Source of the DNA: Cliona cf. orientalis
Taxonomy: Eukaryota > Porifera > Demospongiae > Clionaida > Clionaidae
Direction: 5' to 3'
Length of the DNA: 64,000 bases
Assembly (NCBI GenBank): GCA_963930775.1
Contig: OZ005701.1
Span: forward strand, 6,827,669 to 6,891,668
The first letter of the stretch is position 1, and the number at the start of each line of letters is the position of its first letter. The translations under genes were made by a program, and so were the position numbers. Positions 22,348-63,300 of the stretch are shown piece after piece. Under the pieces are notes generated by a model. It was not told the DNA's origin. It did not search any database and worked only from the letters and a program-made list of their open reading frames with translations.

Positions 22348-22940
22348 TACCGTATAGCACAAAAATTTCGATGGATAAAAATTTCGTTCAATGCTCATAC
22401 TTTGTATTGGCACAAAAATTTCGCCGAATTTAATTTCGCCCACAGCGCTAGTGTGGGTTGCTCACCAGGAAGTAGTGGGTGGAGCTCTCGAATAAACACG
22501 CCACGCACGGGCCCGAATACCGCGTACAGTGCGTACGATCCTCGGCACGATCGATCTCTCGCTTCTTTGTTTCCTGGTCTTAGCTTGCTACACACCGTTC
22601 ACAGCAGTGTTGGCCTCTGCAATGGCGGAAGGCTATAGCTTTGATGATAGGGGTCCCGCAGGATCCAACAAATCCGAGGTGTAGTGTGGAAGTACAACAG
22701 TAGCGACATCAAGCTAGGCTGCAGATCGAGAAAGAAGTCTCAAGAGGTTTTGAATACCAGGTAAAACAGCTGATTGATGATCATGAGGCACTACTAGTAC
22801 TGCTTGGCAGCCACGTGTAAAAAAATTGTGACAAAATTTTCACTGGGTAAAATAATTCGCCGAAAAAAGTTTCGCCCACAACGTGCCTGGGTGAAAAAGG
22901 CGAAAATTTTCTCCAGGCGAAAATTTCCGGCTATACGGTA
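22348..22940. mobile_element. 593-bp TACCGTA-type element with a possible captured segment
   Basis: It begins TACCGTATAGCACAAAAATTTC and ends CGAAAATTTCCGGCTATACGGTA. The inner arms repeat AAAATTTCGCC words. The middle (about 22440-22770) differs: GC-richer, with a start-like context ATGGCGGAAGGCTATAGC at 22622 and splice-like GT/AG sites after it. This could be a captured promoter and first exon, but no product is recognisable. Confidence 0.6.
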
Positions 22941-36793: not shown

Positions 36794-39700
36794 ATTATGT
36801 GCACAGTACCAGTATATCTAGTGATCGAGTAGCATGGTTTCAAACTTATTTCTTCCATAGCACTGGTCATTATAACATAACTCTGTCCCCCCAGACCCCA
36901 CTATGACAGTGGATAATGTCACTCAAATACTGAACAAGATACCAGGAGACAAGTGGGAGAAGGTGATGGATAGACTTAATATTCCCAGGCCACTGCTGGA
37001 GGAGATCCAGAGGAGATACATGTACTCCACTGACATAGAGAAGAACCATGCATGTGCTGACTACTATGTGAACTGCCATCCTGACGCTGAGTGGATACAT
37101 CTTACCAGAAAACTATATTATGAAAAGGAATTTGCCTCAGTAAGGGAATCCAAGTCATTCATATCAACTGGTAAGAATACTGCCACTACATAGCATAACT
37201 ATAGCGATTCTGGATGCCTAATTTTTCAGCTTGATGGTGCAAACTGGCGGCAATAGCAATTTATATGGTTAAGGTATCGATAGCTTCCACTCGGTGAGGT
37301 CTATTCAGCAATATGTATTTTTGTTGAAAGGTCGAAGTGTGCCCGATTTACGCGCCGATTATTGTTTTTCCATACATTTTTCCATAGAGCTAAAAATTAA
37401 ATCTGCAAGGCGTGTACTCAACCGATTCACTTGTTTCGAGGCTTAAATGAAAGAGAATTTCCTAAGCTACAATGTATCTTGTGATTTTTGTTTTTGTTGT
37501 CAATCCCCTCCGTTGCTGAGTTACAACTGTTTTTATGCGCCTAGGTCGATCGTCCGGAATCGCTAATAACTACTGATATGTTATACTCTACTGACGTGCT
37601 CGTATAATAAACTACTTATACAATTGCTGCATACATATTCATTAGTTAGCACTGTCTAGTTTGCCATGCATCCTACATACTGGCATGAGCTTGCGTGATT
37701 AACCTAACCCTCGCCGCAAAGCGTATATAGGCGGAGGGTTACTGTAATCGTTTGGCGATTTTGTCCATCCGTCCGTATGGTAATGGTCGTCTGAGAGCAA
37801 GTACGCATCTGAGGTTTACCAGCATCAAGAAAGAGCGGTCACATCAAGTCCTGCCCAGTGGTGTACTGAGTAGTGTGCAGCTGTTGCCAGTCTGTTTTTA
37901 CATAGCACCTACGGTACCTCAGCTACATGACTCTGTGCCTTGCTGGTCAGTGGTCAATGCAGTGACAGTGTAAACAGGCAGTGGCTCTCAACAAGTGCAT
38001 ATAATTCAGTTAAGTAGTCACAGAGGCTTTCAGTTAATATTATAGTGACATAGCCAGGTGCCTTTCCCCTATGCCTATATCGTGCACTGACTCTGAAGAA
38101 AACCTGAGTACCAGTGAGCAGGCATACACATTGAGACATGCTATAGATCTATACGGAAACCGAGAGGGGCAATCCGATACCATCGCTGACGTGGTCGCCA
38201 ACACCATGCATCGCCGATGCCTTTGCCGACGCCCAACATCTTCGCCAATAGTTATTATCATTGTTATTATAAGACACACCACAACAGGTGCAGCAGGATA
38301 TAGTATCGCCGATAACATCATCGACACATTGCCGACACCTTCGCTGCCATCTTCGCCAACAGTATCGCCGACACTATTGCCGAAGCCTTCGCCGATACCA
38401 TCACCGACAGTATCACCGACATCTTCGCCGATACTATCGCCAACAGTATCGCCGACATCTTCGCCGATATCATACTGGGATATTACATCAAGTAGCGGGG
38501 ATGCACAGCATTTATAACATGGTTATTACCAGATTTAGCAAGCGCTTGATGTCAGCTTTAAGTCTAAGTCCCCTGTGTTATTTTATGTATTCACACAAAG
38601 CTCTACCCTGGCTTTTACCAGTTTGGATTACAACAAGCTGTACTGTCACCGTCATTTGAAGCAGCTATTGTGGTGTGTTTTATCAATTAATAATAATAAT
38701 AGTAATACACACATCAAGATATTCCTTGTGCAAATTTTCCCCAACCTCTTTTAATAATTACTCTCTTGGAAGGAAGGGGAGTTCGAAGTCATCATCGCTA
38801 TCCGCGGCTGTCCCAAAATTGAATGCCTGCGCATGCTCAGCCCCACCCACCGCATTAAGAGCCTCGAGTTCGCAGCACATAAACTCGCCCTTGTGTTTGC
38901 TTAATGTCATAAAGAGAATCTTTTACGCCACTCAGTAGACTCAGTACGATCCTTTGCGCATGCTCAGTCCCTCCCACTGCATTAAGAGCCGCGAGTTCGT
39001 GGCACATAAACTCGCCCTTGTGTTTGTTTAGTATCATAAAGAGAAGTTTTTATACGTCACTCATATGGTTGGCGTATAATCTTCCCTTCATAATGTTATA
39101 ATAATGTTCAAACACAAGGGCAGATATGCGCCAAAATACCTTGCGTAAAAAGGAAACACTGACGTATAATATTCCCTTTAGGTCTAAGGGAAATATTTCC
39201 TAAAATACGCCATTGTGTACATAACTGTGGGCGACAACGTTGGCGATGGTGTCGGCAAATGGGTCGGTGACGATATCGGCGAAGGCATCGGCGATGGCAG
39301 TGCTACCAATTCAAATTTTAATATATCCAATCAAATATCATGATTATCCAAAGTTGATGCACAAAAATCCAAAGTATTATATAAGTATAATGTCATACAC
39401 AGTATTGCAGTTACATAGATTGTTTAAGTTCACTTATTGCATTCTTGCATTTACCAATAAGTTCTTTTGTTGGCTTGAATTCGTAACATTTTTGTGAAAC
39501 GTTGAATTGTATTGTTAAAAGTGAGTTTAATGTATCGATAGAGAGAGAATTCCTGAGTTTCGTTTTGTTCAAACCAAGATGACTAAAAAGTCGCTCAGTG
39601 TCGGCATTTCCATGAGGAATAATAAGAATAGCTTTCGCCAGCTTTGTTAGCAGAGGATATCTAAGGGCACTGTCAGAAAGATCCTTTACTTGACTAACAG

Positions 39701-42700
39701 CATGCCAGTAGGCATCAACTTCTTTTATTGCTTTAATATCAGACGATAGTGGTGATGTACAAAAATCCATGTACTCCTCTTGTAATTCAGATTTTTCATC
39801 ACTCGTGATAACCTGTGGAAGACTATCAGCTGCCAAAAGAACCTGATTCATAAGACTATACTGCTGCAGTGAAGGTTGAAGCCACTTTAAGCTGGTTAAA
39901 AATCTATTTTGCAGCGGTAGTCGTTTTATTGCCTCCTTTGAGCATGTATACCACCAGGATCTGATAGTTTTTTGGAAGTTTCTTAGGTCAGCGGTAGAAA
40001 GAGAGTCTTCCAAAGCTTCTTCAAGATACTGAGAAGTAGTATGACCAACAAAAACCTCATCTAATGGTAGGTATTGAGCTTCATCGTCCAGGCATGCCTC
40101 ACTAATCGTGGATAGCTTGCATACATAGTCAGATTTCATAAACCTAAGCAACAGTTTACGCACAAGACCTTCAATCTCTTGCATAAATACATGTAGTAAA
40201 GGTGCTTGTTGCTGGTTAAAGTAATTTATGATCGGAAGAGCATTGCTAAGAAATAGAAGATACGCCTTAGTGATTGGTTTTTCAAGCACTATTGTTATTC
40301 TCCTAACAGCAGCAGTGGTGTCACTGGTGCTACGAAAATATGAAAGCAAAGCATCATACTGCTCAATGAGACGGTTAACACATGCCTCAAGGCTAAGCCA
40401 CCTTGTTTGACAGGCTTTTAGTAGTTTGTGTGGTTTGACCTCAACAAAACACTGAAATCGTGCAAACTCTCGCATGCGTTTAGCACTTTTATGGAAGTAG
40501 TACCACACATCAGTAGTTAACTCCTCCAATTCCTTGGGAATTACTGAACAAGCATGGTTTGCAGTAAGTGCTGCAATATGACAATTACAGTGAAGGGCAA
40601 TTAATCCTGGCTGCTTAGAACGTAATCGTGACATTACGGAATTCCTTTCTCCCATCATGACATTACAACCATCAGTACCCAATCCAATTAGATGATCATA
40701 GGTTAGCACGTCACTATTTTGAAAATGCTGATCGATGCTATCAAACAAGTGACTGGCATCAGCCTCTTCAACTTTATCCAATGCGTAAAAGAGGCACCTA
40801 ACCTTTCCCAAGGAGTTATCAAAATATCTAAGCATGACAGCAGCCTCCTGGGTAACCGTAATGTCAGTTGTTTCATCAGTTTGCAGGCTAAAATACTGAG
40901 AATCGCTTACTGCACACAGAAGCTTTTTTTGAACATCTTGAGCAATAACCTTGAGTATAGCCGTGGCCTTCGTTCGCCCACACTTAAAATCCTTGGCAAT
41001 TACAGAATCAGGGAACATAGAACGAAACAGTCGATTGCAATGGTCAGCAAGCAAAAAAGCAAGATGATGCTCCCCCAGAAAGTATCCAAACTTAACCTCT
41101 GCCACTATTACCTCCTCGTTTCTTACAGGACCAAAATAAGAGTGTAAAGGCTTGATTCCTGAAGTGCCTTGGTGGGCTTTGGTGTGGACAGTTGTTTGCT
41201 CATGTTTTCTTAAATCCTTAGTACCACCCTGAGCCAGGCTTATATCTCTACCACAAGGCATACAAAAAGCAAAAGAAGGCCCTTTCTTTGAGTCGGTTGC
41301 CCATGGAAAACATTTATTGTACTCCTTTCGGAAATTACATGAATATTTCTTACGTTTCTGTGGCGGTCCCGACATTTCACCGCCAGTAGCGTTTCCTGAA
41401 TTCTCAGTCTCGTCAGCTTCAGATTCAGAAAGTCGATCAGAACTCTCCGTTTCGGTGATAGCGGGTAATTCAGCCATGCTTGCAACCACACTTGGCCAAA
41501 AAAATGAGAGCGTGCAAAGAGAGAACAGTCACATGATAAATAACCACACCTACCAAACGTGTGCGACGGTGCGCATGCGTCAAATCAATCTGTGGCGATT
41601 ATTAGCCTTCATAGCCTAGGGTTGTACCGAATGTCCGACTAATATCGCCATCAGTCCGACTATCCGAAGAGAAAGCAATAAATCCGAAGTATTCGGACAA
41701 AATCCGACACTTTGGCAGCACTGCGATGGTATCGGATTGTGGCGGATTGCCCCTCTCTGCTTCCGTAGATCTACATGTGCATGAGTCATGCATACGTGTA
41801 GCGGTGAGGGTTCTGCACTCCTGTGCATTCATTTAGTGTGAGGTCTAGTAGTGATGTTGTCCACCCTCTTCCCCCCAGACCCCACTCTAACCATGGACAA
41901 TGTTAGTCGCATCATGGATAAGGTCGATCCGAAAATGAAGGCGCAGGTGTGGGTGGATGCTTGTGATGCTAAAATGGAGAAGGATAAGATGGAGGAGATG
42001 TGCACGTCTGGGAAGGAGGATGAATGTGCTGACTTGTATGTCAACTACAACCCATATTCTTCATGGGAATATCTTGTCGGATCACTATACCGTCATCACC
42101 AGGTGGCTGCAGTTGAGGAAGTGAGGTCATATCTCCCTCCTAGAGGTGAGCCTGGCTTTACACATGTTGCTATGAATGTACATGTAACTTAATAAAATTA
42201 ATGGTAAAAGATAATTACTTAACAAGAAAGTAAATTATAAAAACAAAAGTCCAAATTTCTGCGTCAACTTCTGAAGACCAGAGGCTCAAACGAACTGAAT
42301 TTGCTATCGTTCATGATAGTCCATTGATCGGAGCAGGGCCAAGTATGGTGAATCATCAGACAAGGTTTAATTTGTCCTGGAGGACCGCCTTCAAGTGAGT
42401 CACATGGCAGCTGATCAGCAAGTTTTTTATTCACTTTCTGTTCGTGTAACTTGGTGGAGTTCAAATGCTATACTTGGCCCTGTAGAGACTCGTAAGCTAT
42501 CATTTCGTTCGTGTGTCATTTCTTACAGGCTGTTTGCCTTGGCAAAAACTGACGCAGAAAATTGCAAAACTAACCCGCGCTTGCAGACAGACAGTGGCAG
42601 GTTTGCTTTCATTTTTGTGGACCAAGGGGTAGGCATCAGGAAAGCTACTTACCTGTGCCTTGAATATACAAAGAACGTGGACAAAAACTGGAATCATTAA

Positions 42701-54323: not shown

Positions 54324-57300
54324 TTACCCTACTACTACCACATTATACTTCTGACGAATAGTTTCTGCCATGTTCCTGCAGTCTATCTGGTCCAGAGCAC
54401 TTGCCACTGCACTCCACGACACGTGATAGTTGTTTACCCAGTGGTCGATGACATTTACGAGGCATCTGTAGACATCCCTGTGGTTCATCGTGATGCATTC
54501 AATGGTGTCGGGACTGAGGCCTAAGTGAATCCCAAATCTGTCATAGCGGCAGGCTACTGAATCCTTCAGTAACTCACTCATAAGCTGCTGGCAGGAGGGG
54601 GCAAGCACTGCATGAAAACCATGAAAATACAATATTATCATTATGGGCTTTCTATGAAATACCGTAGAGCGGGAAATTTTCGAGGGAGGAAACTTTCACG
54701 GATTGGTAGGAAAGGAGCATTTCGCGGAGAAAACTTTCGCGGAATGTTAAAACTGGTCACATAATGGGTATGGCATGCCTAGAATTTCGTCGAGAAAACT
54801 TTCACGGATGGCTGAAAAATCACAAAATTCGTGAAAGTTTTCTCCCTCGAAAGTTTCCCACTATACGGTACTTAAACACAAAATTACATCATGCACCTGT
54901 CCCTATCCCCCTACCCTTCAATATCATAAGTGAGAATGTAGCAGTATCCCTATACCATTTAGTATAATCTGAGATCCATTCTCGATTCCACACTGGCTCA
55001 GAGTTAGGTTGTCCTCCAGCAGGTTTTCTTCAAGAAACAGCTGCTGTTGGGACTGGGGAACTCTCAAGTTCTTGTCCAAATTAATTCCATCCTTGATCGA
55101 TTTTATGGTGTCAAAGTATTCAAAGTACAAAGTCAAGAACCCAGGAAGGCCATCTTGTTTCTTAACATGAACAGAAATCAGCTTCCCTGAAAAAGAATAA
55201 TATTTACAGTAGCCTTTTATTGTCTGTAGTACCGTAGAATCCCGCGATTACGCCCCCCCTCGCGCATAAGCCCCCCCTGCATTTTTAGCTCAAATTCCTG
55301 CATAGGTAGTTTAGTCTCGCGTATAAGCCCCCCCCCTTCCCTGACTGTAAAATGGAGTCCATAAGTCAATAAAAACAGTAGCTACAGCTAGTAAACTAGC
55401 TATTTGTGTCACAATATGCCTTACTTTGTCGTTTTTCTCGAGTTTTGCCCACCAAACAGCCAGAGAAAGTAAGTAGCCATTAAAGACAGAACAGTTACCA
55501 TTTATTAATTCAAGTTAAATCACGTGTACAGACGCATATTATTATACATGTACTATACGTGTATGCGCTATGTATCAATGCTACAATGTCACGGGATGAC
55601 TGGAGGTGTCTGCTGGTGACTCGAGGTGTTCATTGGTGACTGAAGGTGACTAGAGGTGTCTTCTGGTGACTGGAGGTGTCTGCTGGTGACTCGAAGTGTT
55701 TACTAGTGACTGGAGGTATCTGCTAGTGACTGGAGGTGTTCGCTGGTGAATGGAGGTGTCTTCTGGTGACTGGAGGTGTTCGCTGGTGACTGAAGGTGAC
55801 TGGAGGTAACTAGAGGTGTCTGCTGGTGACTGGAGGTGTCTGCAGGTGACTCGAGGTGTTCGTTGGTGACTCGAGGTGTTTGCTGGTGACTGGAGGTGTC
55901 TGCTAGTGACTGGAGGTGTTTGCTGGTGAATGGAGGTGTCTTCTGGTGACTGGAGGTGTCTACTGGTGACTCAAGGTGTTCGCTGGTGATTGGAGGTGTC
56001 TTCTGGTGACTGGAGGTGTTCACTGGTGACTGAAGGTGACTGGAGGTGACTAGAGGTGTCTGCTGGTGACTGGAGGTGTCTGCTGGTGACTGGAGGTGTC
56101 TGCAGGTGACTCGAGGTGTTCGTTGGTGACTTGAGGTGTTTGCTGGTGACTGGAGGTGTCTGCTAGTGACTGGAGGTGTTTGCTGGTGAATGGAGGTGTC
56201 TTCTGGTGACTGGAGGTGTCTACTGGTGACTCAAGGTGTTCGCTGGTGATTGGAGGTGTCTTCTGGTGACTGGAGGTGTTCACTGGTGACTGAAGGTGAC
56301 TGGAGGTGACTAGAGGTGTCTGCTGGTGACTGGAGGTGTCTGCAGGTGACTCGAGGTGTTCGTTGGTGACTCGAGGTGTTTGCTGGTGACTGGAGGTGTC
56401 TGCTAGTGACTGGAGGTGTTTGCTGGTGAATGGAGGTGTCTTCTGGTGACTGTAGGTGTCTACTGGTGACTCAAGGTGTTCGCTGGTGATTGGAGGTGTC
56501 TTCTGGTGACTGGAGGTGTTCACTGGTGACTGAAGGTGACTGGAGGTGACTAGAGGTGTCTGCTGGTGACTGGAGGTGTTCGCTGGTGACTGGAGGTGTC
56601 TGCAGGTGACTCGAGGTGTTCGTTGGTGACTCGAGGTGTTTGCTAGTGACTGGAGGTGTCTTCTGGTGACTGGAGGTGTCTGCTAGTGACTGGAGGTGTT
56701 CGCTGGTGACTAGAGGTGTCTGCTGGTGACTCGAGGTGTTTGCTGGTGACTGAAGGTGACTAGAGGTGTTTTCTGGTGACTGGAGGTGTCTCCTGGTGAC
56801 TGGAGGTGTTCGCTGGTGACTGAAGGTGTTTTCTGGTGACTGGAGGTGTCTGCTAGTGACTGGAGGTGTTCGCTGGTGACTGAAGTTGACTAGAGGTGAC
56901 TAGAGGTGTCTTCTGGTGACTGGAGGTGTCTACTGGTGACTCAAGGTGTTCGCTGGTGATTGGAGGTGTCTTCTGGTGACTGAAGGTGACTGGAGGTGAC
57001 TAGAGGTGTCTACTGGTGACTGGAGGTGTCTGCAGGTGACTTGAGGTGTTCGTTGGTGACTCGAAGTGACTGGAGGTGTCTTCTGGTGACTGGAGGTGTC
57101 TGCTAGTGACTGGAGGTGTTCGCTGGTGACTGGAGGTGTCTTCTGGTGACTGGAGGTGTCTGCTGGTGACCTGAGGTGTTCGCTGGTGACTGAAGGTGAC
57201 TAGAGGTGTCTTCTGGTGACTGGAGGTGTCTCCTGGTGACTGGAGGTGTTCGCTGGTGACTGAAGGTGTTTTCTGGTGACTGGAGGTGTCTGCTGGTGAC

Positions 57301-60300
57301 TGGAAGTGTCTGCAGGTGACTCAAGGTGTTTGTTGGTGACTCGAGGTGTTTGCTAGTGACTGGAGGTGTCTTCTGGTGACTGGAGGTGTCTGCTAGTGAC
57401 TGGAGGTGTTCGCTGGTGACTAGCGGTGTCTGCTGGTGACTGGAGGTGTCTGCTGGTGACTCGAGGTGTTCGCTGGTGACTGAAGGTGACTAGAGGTTTC
57501 TTCTGGTGACTGGAGCTGTCTCCTGGTGACTGGAGGTGTTCGCTGGTGACTGAAGGTGTTTTCTGGTGACTGGAGGTGTCTGCTGGTGACCGGAGGTGTT
57601 CGCTGGTGACTGAAGGTGTCTGCAGGTGACTCGAGGTGTTCGTTGGTGACTCGAGGTGTTTGCTAGTGACTGGAGGTGTCTTCTGGTGACTGGAGGTGTC
57701 TGCTAGTGACTAGAGGTGTTCGCTGGTGACTAGAGGTGTCTGCTGGTGACTCGAGGTGTTCCCTGGTGACTGAAGGTGACTAGAGGTGTCTTCTGGTGAC
57801 TGGAAGTGTCTGCTGGTGACTCAAGGTATTCACTAGTGACTGGAGGTGTTTGCTAGTGACTGGAGGTGTCTACTGGTGACTAGAGGTGTCTGCTGGTGAC
57901 TCAAGGTGTTCGCTGGTGACTCGAGGTGTTCCCTGGTGACTGAAGGTGACTAGAGGTGCCTTCTGGTGACCCAAGGTGTTTGCTAGTGACTGGAGGTGTC
58001 TACTGGTGACTGGAGGTGTCTTCTGGTGACTGGAGGTGTTCACTGGTGACTGAAGGTGACTTCTGATGACTGGAGGTGTTCACTGGTGACTGGAGGTGTT
58101 CTCTGCTGATTGGTGTGATACAAATTGTTTTACTGGCTGATGAAGTTAATGTGTTCATTATTGATGACGTGATAATGATATTAATATTACTGCAGAGACT
58201 GCAGTTTATAGATTTATTATACTGGTCAACATTGTCGTTACATAATGGACAAAAGAGCATCTATTCTTTTATTTTGTTTTAAATAAACTACTTTTACAAG
58301 GCAGTGGAAGGATTCTATGTGTATGTTAAGTATTTACAGGCCTAGGAGTGTAGCACCTAGCATGAGTGGCCCAGTGCTGGATCTTTGAACAGTGGCTTTG
58401 CTGAAAGTAGAGCAAGAACTCATCCAATCATTTTCTGTTAAGAACGTTAGAAATTTCTGTAGCTTCTTGTTGAATTCAATCAATAAACTTTCTTATAGCA
58501 AAAATTAATTATCAAATGGGGATACACTTTAGGTTGAAGTTCCTTGTCCTCGATCTTTTCTTTTATCGCTCACCTCTAATTTTGTCTGGATGCCAGCAAC
58601 ACAACTTTTTTAGCAGAATTTTCACCAAATACTCTGTCACGATATGAAATACAGTAAAACCACCATGCCAGTGGCCCTGGGTTCGATTCCCGGTGGCTGC
58701 CCGGATTTTTTCTCTTCCAGCTAGCTTTAGGATGTAGATGGGGTGATGAGAGTGTGTGTGCCCATCCTTGTTAAGCTAAGAACTTTCATGCAGTGCTTAA
58801 GTTTCATAACATGACCATAATTATGATTGTAATGTTGACCAGTAAAATAACTGCAGTCTCTACAGTAATAGCTATTATCATTGCCATCAATAGTGAATAC
58901 TTTAACTTCATCAGCCAATGAACAATTTTTGTCACACTAGTCACTGTCAATCACCAGTGAACACCTGCAGTCACCAGAGAACACGTCCACTTACTAGCAG
59001 ACACCTCCAGTCACCAGAAGACACCTTCAGTCACCAGCAAACACCTCCAGTCACCAGAAGACACCTCCAGTCACCAGCGAACACCTCCAGTCACTAGCAG
59101 TCACCAGAAGACACCTCCAGTCACTAGTAAACTCCTCCAGTCACCAGCAAACACCTCCAATCACTAGCAGACACCTCCAGTCACTAGCAAGTACCTCCAG
59201 TCACTAGCAGACACCTCCAGTCACCAGAAGACACCTCTAGTCACTAGTAAACACCTCCAGTCACCAGCGAATACCTCCAGTCACTAGCAGACACCTCCAG
59301 TCACCAGAAGACACCTCCAATCATCAGAAGACACCTTCAGTCACCAGCGAACACCTCCAGTCACTAGCAGACACCTCCAGTCACCAGAAAACACCTCCAG
59401 TCACCAGAAGACACCTCTAGTCACCTTCAGTCACCAGCAAACACCTCGAGTCACCAGCAGACACCTCCAGTCACCAGAAGACACCTCTAGTCACCAGCGA
59501 ACACCTCCAGTCACTAGCAGACACCTCCAATCACCAGAAGACACCTCCAGTCACTAGTAGACACCTTCAGTCACTTCGAGTCACCAACGAACACTTCGAG
59601 TCACCTGCAGACACCTCCAGTCACCAGCGAACACCTCCAGTCACCAGAAGACACCTCTAGTCACCTTCAGTCACCAGCGAACACCTCCAGTCACTAGCAG
59701 ACACCTCCAGTCACCAGAAGACACCTCCAGTCACTAGTAGACACCTCCAATCACTTCGAGTCACCAACGAACACCTCGAGTCACCTGCAGACACCTCCAG
59801 TCACCAGCGAACACCTCCAGTCACCAGAAGACACCTCCAGTCACCAGCGAACACCTCCAGTCACCAGAAGACACCTCCAGTCACTAGTAGACACCTCCAA
59901 TCACTTCGAGTCACCAACGAACACCTCGAGTCACCTGCAGACACCTCTAGTCACCAGCGAACACCTCCGGTCACCAGAAGACACCTCTAGTCACCTTCAG
60001 TCACCAGCAAACACCTCCAGTCACTAGTAGACACCTCCAGTCACCAGAAGACACCTCCAGTCACTAGTAGACACCTCCAGTCACTTTGAGTCACCAACGA
60101 ACACCTCCAGTCACTAGCAGACACCTCCAGTCACCAGAAGACACCTCTAGACACCTTCAGTCACCAGCGAACACCTCCAGTCACTAGCAGACACCTCTAG
60201 TCACCAGAAGACACCTCCAGTCACTAGTAGACACCTCCAGTCACTTCGAGTCACCAACAAACACCTCGAGTCACCTGCAGACACCTCCAGTCACCAGCGA

Positions 60301-63300
60301 ACACCTCCAGTCACCAGAAAACACCTTCAGTCATCAGCGAACATCTCCAGTCACCAGCAGACACCTCCAGTCACTAGAAGACACCTCTAGTCACCTTCAG
60401 TCACCAGCGAACACCTTGAGTCACCAGCAGACACCTCCAGTCACCAACAGACACCTCTAGTCACCTCCAGTCACCTTTAGTCACCAGTGAACACCTCCAG
60501 TCACCAGAAGACACCTCCAATCACCAGAGAACACCTTTAGTCACCAGTAGACGCCTCCAGTCACCAGAAGACACCTCTAGTCACCTCCAGTCACCTTCAG
60601 TCACCAGCGAACACCTCCAGTCACTAGCAGACACCTCCAGTCACCAGAAAACACCTTCAGTCACCAGCGAACACCTCCAGTCACCAGGAGACACCTCCAG
60701 TCACCTGAAGACACCTCTAGTCACCTTCAGTCACTAGCGAACACCTCGAGTCACCAGCAGACACCTCTAGTTACCAGCGAACACCTCCAGTCACTAGCAG
60801 ACACCTCCAGTCACCAGAAGACACCTCCAGTCACTAGCAAACACCTCGAGTCACCAACGAACACCTCGAGTCACCTGCAGACACCTCCAGTCACCAGCGA
60901 ACACCTCCAGTCACCAGGAGACACCTCCAGTCACCAGAAGATACCTCTAGTCACCTTCAGTCACCAGCGAACACCTCGAGTCACCAGCAGACACCTCTAG
61001 TCACCAGCGAACACCTCCAGTCACTAGCAGACACCTCCAGTCACCAGAAGACACCTCCAGTCACTAGTAGACACCTCCAGTCACTTCGAGTCACCAACGA
61101 ACACCTCGAGTCACCTGCAGACACCTCCAGTCACCAGCAGACACCTCTAGTCACCTCCAGTCACCTTCAGTCACCAGCGAACACCTCCAGTCACCAGAAG
61201 ACACCTCCAATCACCAACGAACACCTTGAGTCACCAGTAGACACCTCCAGTCACTAGAAGACACCTCTAGTCACCTCCAGTCACCTTCAGTCACCAGCGA
61301 ACACCTCCAGTCACCAGCGAACACCTCCAGTCACCAGAAAACACCTTCAGTCACCAGCAAACACCTCCAGTCACCAGGAGACACCTCCAGTCACCAGAAG
61401 ACACCTCTAGTCACCTTCAGTCACCAGCGAACACCTCGAGTCACCAGCAGACACCTCCAGTCACCAGCAGACACCTCTAGTCACCAGCGAACACCTCTAG
61501 TCACTAGCAGACACCTCCAGTCACCAGAAGACACCTCCAGTCACTAGTAGACACCTCCAGTCACTTCGAGTCACCAACGAACACCTCGAGTCACCTGCAG
61601 ACACCTCCAGTCACCAGCAGACACCTCTAGTCACCTCCAGTCACCTTCAGTCACCAGCGAACACCTCCAGTCACCAGAAGACACCTCCAATCACCAACGA
61701 ACACCTTGAGTCACCAGTAGACACCTCCAATCACCAGAAGACACCTCTAGTCACCTCCAGTCACCTTCAGTCACCAGTGAACACCTCCAGTCACCAGAAG
61801 ACACCTCCATTCACCAGCGAACACCTCCAGTCACTAGCAGACACCTCCAGTCACTAGTAAACACCTCCAGTCACCAGCGAACACCTCCAGTCACTAGCAG
61901 ACACCTCCAGTCACCAGCAAACACCTCGAGTCACCAACGAACACCTCGAGTCACCTGCAGACACCTCCAGTCACCAGCGAACACCTCCAGTCACCAGCAG
62001 ACACTTTTAGTCACCTCCAGTCACCTTCAGTCACCAGCGAACACCTCCAGTCACCAGAAGACACCTCCAATCACCAGCGAACACCTTGAGTCACCAGTAG
62101 ACACCTCCAGTCACCAGAAGACACCTCTAGTCACCTCCAGTCACCTTCAGTCACCAGTGAACACCTCCAGTCACCAGAAGACACCTCCATTCACCAGCGA
62201 ACACCTCCAGTCACTAGCAGACACCTCCAGTCACTACTAAATACCTTCAGTCACCAGCGAACACCTCGAGTCACCAGCAGACACCTCCAGTCACCAGAAG
62301 ACACCTCTAGTCACCTTCAGTCACCAATGAACACCTCGAGTCACCAGGAGACACCTCCAGTCATCCCGTGACATTGTAGCATTGATACATAGCGCATACA
62401 CGTATAGTACATGTATAATGATATGCGTCTGTACACGTGATTTAACTTGAATTAATAAATGGTAACTGTTCTGTCTTTAATGGCTACTGAGAAAGTACAG
62501 AGATCGCGCGCCCACGTGGCATTCGGCGGTCGGTAATGGTCGTCACACGGAAATGTTAGGATCCCGCATATAAGCCCCCTCCCCACTTTTGCCCAATCCT
62601 AGCATGCACAAAGGGGGGGCGTAATCGCGGGATTCTACGGTACATACAGGAAGTCAAAATTATTATAATTTTGTCACATTGTATATTCTGTTATAATAAT
62701 ATTATACAATTGAGGACAGACAAGCCCAGCTAATTTCATATACAGGACAAACAGTATTCACGGCTAAACATTACTTTTCTAGACAGAAGTGACGACCTTT
62801 ACCAGAAAAAGCATTTTTTTAAGCTACTACAATAAACATGGTACTTCTGACTAAACTTTTCACTGACCTCTTACTACAAGATGAGATTGATTATTTAATC
62901 GCAGAATCATATGTACTGGTAGCAGTTCATCATCCAACAGGTCATCGTAGTGCCCAGGTACAACAAGCCTTTGGTGAGGTGCGGGATAGATGGGCTCAGC
63001 TTCTTCGATTTGTGATTTGACAACTTGAATCGTCTGTGCACGTAATACTTGCAGAGTGATAGAATTTCCAGACGGCAGCTTCACCGCTATTGGAAAAGTA
63101 ACTACCGCAGAACAGGATTTGGCTGGTACTGGATCTTGAGCATAAGTAGGTGGCTTTGTAACAATTTGATCTGGGGTGATAGAATTTGTGGAATAATTTT
63201 GAATTATGTCTTACATGCATCTAAAAATGGCCACATCCCAATAAGGCTTATTCTCCATAATAATTATTATTATTCTTATTATGCTGCAAGATTTGCATTC

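What the first reader, a model, noticed from the sequence alone, without database searches (positions are those of the whole stretch)
55230..62642. Giant foldback transposon with 20-bp satellite arms inside a host intron
The two satellite arrays are in opposite orientation and are bracketed by matching inverted unique sequence and identical outer termini, so the 7.4 kb is one symmetrical unit rather than two chance minisatellites. Foldback elements with tandem-repeat arms are known from Drosophila (FB); this one has a 10/20-bp period and TA-flanked TACCGTA termini shared with small elements nearby. It could form a very large hairpin and destabilise the locus. The two arms differ in length and repeat order, so they evolve separately.
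Basis: partly seen in the sequence, partly recalled or inferred. Interest (0 to 1): 0.85.

Follow-up and report, generated by a model that had tools for sequence, protein, structure and literature searches.

The report
Foldback transposon nested inside a MITE
A 7-kb sponge jumping gene with long mirror-image arms of a 20-letter repeat has landed inside an older, unrelated small jumping gene; it is a well-preserved new example of a known kind of element, not a new kind.

Summary
The symmetrical structure is real, but the boundaries given are wrong: two nested elements were read as one. The foldback transposon proper is 55472-62488 (7,017 bp): 128-bp unique terminal inverted repeats (127/128 identical), 2.5- and 3.4-kb inverted arrays of a 20-bp (10+10) repeat, and an ~820-bp non-coding middle, flanked by an exact 9-bp duplication, GAGAAAGTA. 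It sits inside a 387-bp TA-flanked MITE, which supplies the TACCGTA ends (39 other places carry that end). Without the inner element and one 9-mer, the MITE is 98.45-99.5% identical end to end to 5 of 7 copies read. One interrupts a ZU5-domain frame that is open once the element is left out. No transposase was found in the element. The 9-bp duplications, and one transposase-bearing MULE with 15-bp tandem-repeat ends (1 of 20 MULE loci read), point to mobilisation in trans by a Mutator/Foldback-type (MULE) transposase; its actual partner was not found. The arms evolve mostly as separate left and right lineages. The strict 10-bp lattice is explained by recent amplification; selection is not shown.

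The parts
55230..55471 (+). Left part of the host MITE (starts TACCGTAGAATCCCGCG), including one copy of the 9-bp duplication
   Evidence: joined halves align end to end at 98.45-99.5% to 5 of 7 other loci compared
55463..55471 (.). Target-site duplication, left copy, GAGAAAGTA
55472..55599 (+). Left terminal inverted repeat, unique part (128 bp, starts AGTAGCCATTAAAGACAG; runs a few bases into the array)
   Evidence: 127/128 identical to the right one
55597..58112 (+). Left satellite arm: decamers A (GGTGACTGGA-like) and B (GGTGTCTGCT-like), mostly alternating, 20-bp unit, 251 decamers
58107..58233 (+). Left inner inverted repeat, 77% identical to 58831-58943
58113..58936 (+). Middle (824 bp); no ORF of 110 codons or more between stops, no Rfam match; lies on the other strand in the C14 copy
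58664..58786 (+). 123-bp insertion absent from the C11 and C14 middles, flanked by CATGC repeats; contains a tRNA-B-box-like stretch (motif recalled) and belongs to a dispersed repeat
58831..58943 (-). Right inner inverted repeat
58937..62363 (-). Right satellite arm, same 20-bp unit in reverse orientation, 342 decamers
62361..62488 (-). Right terminal inverted repeat, unique part (ends CTTTAATGGCTACT)
62489..62497 (.). Target-site duplication, right copy, GAGAAAGTA
62498..62642 (+). Right part of the host MITE (ends CGCGGGATTCTACGGTA)
54975..55187 (-). Host exon, ubiquitin-like domain; probable 3' boundary of the intron
   Evidence: 31.7 bits, cut-off 25.4; splice site read by eye, no transcript
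62860..63210 (-). Probable host exon upstream, ubiquitin-like
   Evidence: 25.1 bits, just below the cut-off 25.4

Best explanation
A non-autonomous foldback-type DNA transposon, most likely of the Mutator/Foldback (MULE) superfamily, inserted into a pre-existing 387-bp MITE in a probable intron of a sponge gene. Shown: ends, exact 9-bp target-site duplications in 4 of 4 two-ended copies, near-identical uninterrupted MITEs elsewhere, an open reading frame across another insertion site once the element is left out, a middle too small and too closed for a transposase, low divergence between the middles of three copies. Inferred: a MULE transposase encoded elsewhere recognises the unique ends, and perhaps the repeats, and moves the element by cut and paste, duplicating 9 bp. 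The arms grow and shrink mostly in 10-bp steps by tandem duplication and deletion, each side largely on its own. Deletion between inverted arms makes short derivatives such as the C5 copy.
For: Four copies with matching ends and exact 9-bp duplications (GAGAAAGTA, CAGCAGGCA, GATTTTATG, CCTGTTTAC). Joined MITE 387 bp, 99.2-99.5% identical to L002-L005 and 98.45% to L006. Leaving out the C11 copy gives a 256-residue open frame whose ZU5 match, 24.3 bits against cut-off 21, spans the junction. 881 of 889 satellite-pattern hits in the genome lie in the four fetched copy regions. Middles differ by 8/657, 8/631 and 4/631 substitutions. Same-side arm homology in 97 of 133 windows. 58 MULE-domain matches in the genome, 56 over the cut-off. 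MULE locus L054 carries inverted 15-bp tandem-repeat ends around its ORF, and L072, a partly deleted relative, has them too. Print: Tm1 combines FB-like tandem-repeat ends, 9-bp duplications and a Phantom/MULE transposase (passages); Tetris was placed in Mutator by its 8-10-bp duplications (section read).
Against: No transposase-bearing copy with these ends was found. None of the 20 places matching the first 17 bases with up to 1 mismatch lies within 10 kb of any of the 58 listed MULE matches (coordinates compared by hand). The ends gave only weak hits in the 22 MULE loci compared (best E 0.025, 20 bp, inside the TIR), with short flanks. Of the 20 MULE loci that were read, only L054 showed inverted tandem arrays (flanks 1.5 kb); its 15-bp repeats do not share the 20-bp sequence. 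8 of 889 satellite-pattern hits were not located. The primary assembly is incomplete (k-mer completeness 60.5%, BUSCO 80.8%), so absence of a partner is weak evidence either way.
Confidence: 0.83

Rival explanations
1. One 7.4-kb foldback element with TA-flanked TACCGTA ends.
For: Outer 31 bp are perfect inverted copies.
Against: 39 other places carry the same left end; of 7 read, 5 are complete 384-389-bp MITEs without satellite. The inner ends occur at three other two-ended copies, each with its own 9-bp duplication and no TACCGTA in the 40 flanking bases shown.
Confidence: 0.01
2. A foldback-type element moved by a non-MULE transposase (P/Galileo-like, hAT, Rehavkus treated as separate, or another superfamily).
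For: Foldback ends arose in different superfamilies; Galileo is P-superfamily. [quoted passage not shown]
Against: 9-bp duplications in 4 of 4 copies fit MULE, 8-11 bp; from recall, P and hAT elements usually give 7-8 bp. A MULE with tandem-repeat ends lives in this genome.
Confidence: 0.14
3. Assembly artefact: an inverted misjoin of two chance minisatellites.
For: Long inverted tandem arrays are hard to assemble; the assembly needed 201 manual join corrections and keeps 216 gaps.
Against: Four loci with exact, different 9-bp duplications, near-identical uninterrupted MITEs elsewhere, an open reading frame across the C11 site. PacBio and Hi-C assembly whose reads average about 9 kb, my division of the printed base and read counts.
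Confidence: 0.01
4. The arms are kept by selection as a phased lattice of transposase (or host protein) binding sites rather than being passive amplification.
For: 3 off-register breaks in 22,230 bp, BB decamer pairs 3 against AA 190, core positions 93-100% constant in A decamers. Galileo tandem repeats do bind transposase (abstract and passages).
Against: Control: among 33 singleton decamers with a one-step parent (8 more had none), 26 of 33 changes hit core positions, against about 70% expected (core 14 of 20 positions, my arithmetic): no depletion. The control leans towards core, because a change at a variable position often recreates a common variant, so it is not conclusive. 3 off-register breaks are unremarkable beside 33-54 rare substitutions, so recent amplification of few founders suffices.
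Confidence: 0.2

Closest known systems
Tm1 (root-knot nematodes, Mutator/Foldback, Phantom subclass; PMC3169594)
   Same: Composite ends: outer motif, variable number of short tandem repeats (13-15 bp), conserved inner stretch; 9-bp duplications; non-coding and transposase-bearing members; nested elements also described (abstract and passages seen)
   Different: No sequence likeness noticed to the motifs printed there (not formally compared); the two intact Tm1 copies whose lengths I saw are 1,080 and 2,593 bp; here arms reach about 4 kb and the unit is 20 bp
Drosophila FB (Foldback)
   Same: Inverted arms of short tandem repeats including 10/20-bp periods, 9-bp duplications (recalled, from no call)
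   Different: No sequence comparison made; host is a sponge
Tetris (Drosophila virilis; PMC4079207)
   Same: Non-autonomous, three complete copies, tandem repeats in arms, 8-10-bp duplications, no autonomous partner found (abstract and sections 3 and 17 read)
   Different: 220-bp units; its repeats also form free satellite arrays, whereas here 881 of 889 hits stay inside the four copies
Galileo (Drosophila, P superfamily; PMC3688188)
   Same: Long internally repetitive ends; repeats contain transposase-binding sites (passages seen)
   Different: P-type transposase; shorter duplications (recalled)
Rehavkus (PMC6446971; PMC10218199)
   Same: 9-bp duplications, minisatellite near or in the ends (passages seen)
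   Different: Described with a PHD finger in its transposase; no transposase here. Listed hosts are arthropods and annelids
MULE loci L054/L072 of the same genome
   Same: Inverted tandem-repeat ends; L054 holds a MULE-domain ORF, L072 pieces of the same ORF
   Different: 15-bp units, arms of about 75 bp, no shared end sequence

Membership tests
Foldback-type transposon (structural class) | Long terminal inverted repeats made largely of tandem repeats, unequal arms, little or no coding middle | tested here: met
Foldback-type transposon (structural class) | Mobile: several copies with target-site duplications | tested here: met
   4 of 4 two-ended copies, exact 9 bp; the single-end pieces (C17, C11:1235667, C13:4518421) cannot be tested
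Mutator/MULE superfamily | 8-11-bp target-site duplication | tested here: met
   9 bp in 4 of 4; range from PMC6446971, passages seen
Mutator/MULE superfamily | Encoded MULE transposase, or ends shared with an element that encodes one | tested here: inconclusive
   No ORF of 110 codons or more in the middle of the window copy; the C11 and C14 middles are shorter and alignable, C5 has none. Only weak hits of the ends in 22 MULE loci (L037-L056, L072, L073: 21 of the 58 matches plus one relative), short flanks only. No 17-bp end within 10 kb of a listed MULE match
Rehavkus | Transposase with PHD finger | not testable with these tools
   No transposase found in the element
P superfamily (Galileo) | 7-8-bp target-site duplication (recalled) | tested here: not met
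   9 bp in 4 of 4
TACCGTA MITE (outer element) | About 387 bp, TA-ended, identical 31-bp ends, no satellite | tested here: met
   Joined halves 387 bp; 5 of 7 loci compared align end to end, 98.45-99.5%

The most novel reading that the evidence does not exclude
In this sponge one MULE lineage repeatedly builds its ends from phased short repeats: about 75-bp arrays of 15-mers on transposase-bearing copies, kilobase arrays of 20-mers on this element. The giant arms act as a transposase sink, several hundred sites per copy, that lets a coding-free element outcompete its provider. Arm length would then be a trait under selection for capturing transposase.
Probability: 0.12. Interest if true: 0.65.

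Novelty: new member of a known kind. Interest (0 to 1): 0.4.

Why it matters
It is a low-divergence foldback family in a sponge, with complete copies, paralogous uninterrupted sites for one insertion, and one insertion in a coding frame. The terms sponge, foldback and transposon together gave 7 papers, none about such an element by title; Cliona with transposon gave 13 papers, and none of the 10 listed was by title. Only an open-access library was searched. Its side-specific arm lineages allow a direct reading of how satellite-like arms form inside transposons. It also shows a reading trap: nested insertions look like one element with double termini.

Tried and rejected
Tried without result: an autonomous copy by end sequence. 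One search gave 12 places, 11 of them the eight known ends, C11:1235667, C17:1898988 and C13:4518421 (control 0); the twelfth, C15:3105968, looks like a kinase-type host gene by eye. One search gave 20 places, the same 11 without mismatch and 9 with one mismatch, against 5 in the control; two variants among these 9 occur twice each. None of the 9 was fetched at that point (the C15 one had been). ORFs beside the two single-end fragments and the C13:4518421 end were listed; no protein-family search was run on them, and they looked host-like by eye only. More copies of the L057 end: only itself. Rfam on 54800-63200 and tRNA scan of the window: nothing. Sea-urchin TU literature: 0 papers. The Phantom paper: not held. 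A target-site duplication for L054: none convincing.

Considered and rejected: a selected 10-bp lattice as the first explanation (control is against it, though it leans towards core); a palindromic origin of the C5 copy from two right arms. At diagnostic site 141 both C5 ends are right-type, but the interior of its long arm is closer to left arms (4 of 6 windows), so a reversed orientation plus one converted or mutated site is enough. The near-identical 128-bp ends are not used as a clock: the inner inverted repeats are only 77% alike, which suggests that the outer ends are homogenised or conserved.

Not followed: the 8 satellite-pattern hits outside the four copies were not listed by the tool. 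38 of the 58 MULE matches came without loci; one of these was fetched later (L073). The arrays themselves hold open frames of up to 210 codons, which I take as repeat-born; they were not searched against protein families.
Full report
What is there. The window is contig C13, 6,827,669-6,891,668, of a 216.8-Mb genome in 149 contigs. Thirteen contig lengths seen (11: 37.5, 11.46, 9.79, 9.46, 9.36, 8.93, 8.40, 8.35, 7.98, 7.82, 7.76 Mb; 2: 9.99, 9.89 Mb) match, number by number, those printed for Cliona cf. orientalis, a demosponge (PMC12639293, passages seen; lineage of Cliona orientalis). The totals differ slightly: 217.17 Mb in 307 scaffolds in print.

Two elements, not one. The inverted sequence flanking the arrays is in two separated blocks: 31 bp at the extreme outside, and 128 bp next to the arrays, 127/128 identical; between them only short matches were found. 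The inner block begins AGTAGCCATTAAAG at 55472 and ends CTTTAATGGCTACT at 62488. Directly outside it is GAGAAAGTA on both sides.

The outer element. The first 171 bases of the finding match 39 other places in the genome at 95-99% (40 of 924 candidates were scored, so a lower bound). When the inner element and one GAGAAAGTA are left out, the rest is a 387-bp sequence with TACCGTA...TACGGTA ends. Of 7 other loci compared, 5 align end to end at 98.45-99.5%, and 2 align over 376-382 bp at 97.4-98.1%. This is an ordinary TA-ended MITE, and the foldback element broke it.

The family. The inner ends occur at four places as pairs, and at two more as single ends; a further diverged end is C13:4518421. 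The paired copies are 7,017 bp (C13, this window), 8,629 (C11), 7,955 (C14) and 1,722 bp (C5). All four have exact 9-bp duplications of different sequence. In C11, joining the flanks gives one open frame of 256 residues across the junction, with a ZU5 match that spans it (residues 118-194, 24.3 bits, cut-off 21), so this copy sits in what looks like a coding sequence. The joined flanks of C14 and C5 gave only short frames of 65-80 residues. C14 has its middle on the other strand, which means insertion in the other orientation. C5 has lost the middle: a short and a long arm meet at a small palindrome.

The arms. They are a lattice of two decamers, A (GGTGACTGGA-like, 1,202) and B (GGTGTCTGCT-like, 1,012), mostly alternating: AB 1,007, BA 1,003, AA 190, BB 3. 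In 22,230 bp there are 3 register breaks. Arms carry higher-order repeats that differ between copies and sides: 260/240 bp in C13 left, 480/380 in C13 right, 100 in C11 left and in C14 left and right, 310 in C11 right. Some are nearly private (the 240-bp unit: 3 in C13 left, 1 each in C13 right and C11 left, at 8% mismatch) and some shared (the 100-bp unit, in seven of eight arms at 8% mismatch). Interior windows match best the same-side arm of another copy in 97 of 133 cases, the opposite arm of another copy in 12, the opposite arm of the same copy in 3, and are tied in 21; the outer 300 bp of each arm and the short C5 arm were left out.

Is the lattice selected? Against it: of 33 singleton decamers with a one-step parent, 26 carry their change in core positions, no fewer than expected; 8 others had no such parent. 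This control leans towards core, since changes at variable positions often recreate a common variant, so it is not conclusive. The three register breaks are also no surprise beside a few dozen rare substitutions. Recent amplification from few founders explains the regularity. The 77% complementarity of the arms is matched at many offsets (70-81% in the 25 longest of 1,145 pairs), so it is not evidence of a conserved giant hairpin.

The satellite belongs to the element. Of 889 pattern hits genome-wide, 881 lie in the four fetched copy regions. The other 8 were not listed. The diverged end at C11:1235667 keeps a few degenerate repeats of the same kind, so the repeats seem to predate the present copies.

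Who moves it? The middle has no ORF of 110 codons or more between stops. The genome has 58 MULE-domain matches at E up to 0.001, 56 over the cut-off (a lower bound). Of the 20 MULE loci read with 1.5-kb flanks, one, L054, has inverted arrays of 15-bp repeats at both ends around a 401-codon ORF with a MULE domain (42.8 bits). A partly deleted relative, L072, has the same ends, and a third locus, L073, shows a 15-bp array on one side only. So a MULE with tandem-repeat ends lives in this genome. This does not show that it moves this element: the end sequences are not shared, and no 17-bp end lies within 10 kb of a listed MULE match.

Age. The three middles differ by 0.6-1.3%. No mutation rate is available here, so I give no date.

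Comparison with print. Tm1 of root-knot nematodes is the closest described design, then Tetris, Galileo and Rehavkus; of these I saw abstracts, passages or named sections, not whole texts. The Drosophila FB resemblance, including 10/20-bp periods and 9-bp duplications, is recalled, not tested. The element is therefore a new member of a known kind. What is of interest is its completeness, low divergence, host and arm history.

Noticed in passing
window 39411-41528 (-): 705-codon open frame with a hAT dimerisation domain (33.6 bits): a hAT-type transposase in the same window.
   Followed up: no
window 58664-58786: 123-bp insert with a tRNA B-box-like stretch (motif recalled), absent from the C11 and C14 middles; the same ~127-bp piece recurs across the genome, often at 288-bp spacing (e.g. 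C1:8419271, 8419559, 8419847), so a dispersed short tandem array. No tRNA found by ARAGORN.
   Followed up: partly
L054, L072, L073: MULE loci with 15-bp tandem repeats at the ends (both ends in L054 and L072, one side in L073): possible relatives of the enzyme that moves the foldback element.
   Followed up: partly
L019 (C11:9346608-9355236): A foldback copy interrupts an open frame with a ZU5 domain, likely a disrupted or segregating allele.
   Followed up: partly
window 54660-54870: TACCGTA...TACGGTA pair of another small element with a different interior (TACCGTAGAGCGGGAAATTTTCG), also at 22348 and 28509 in related form.
   Followed up: no
L058 (C15:3098000-3107900): An unrelated long minisatellite with units like GTCACTGGAGACACTG; whether it sits in a transposon was not checked.
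   Followed up: no
L057 7500-7844 (C13:4518099-4518443): Single diverged end of the family followed by irregular GACACACTGAAC-like motifs; only one copy found in the genome.
   Followed up: partly
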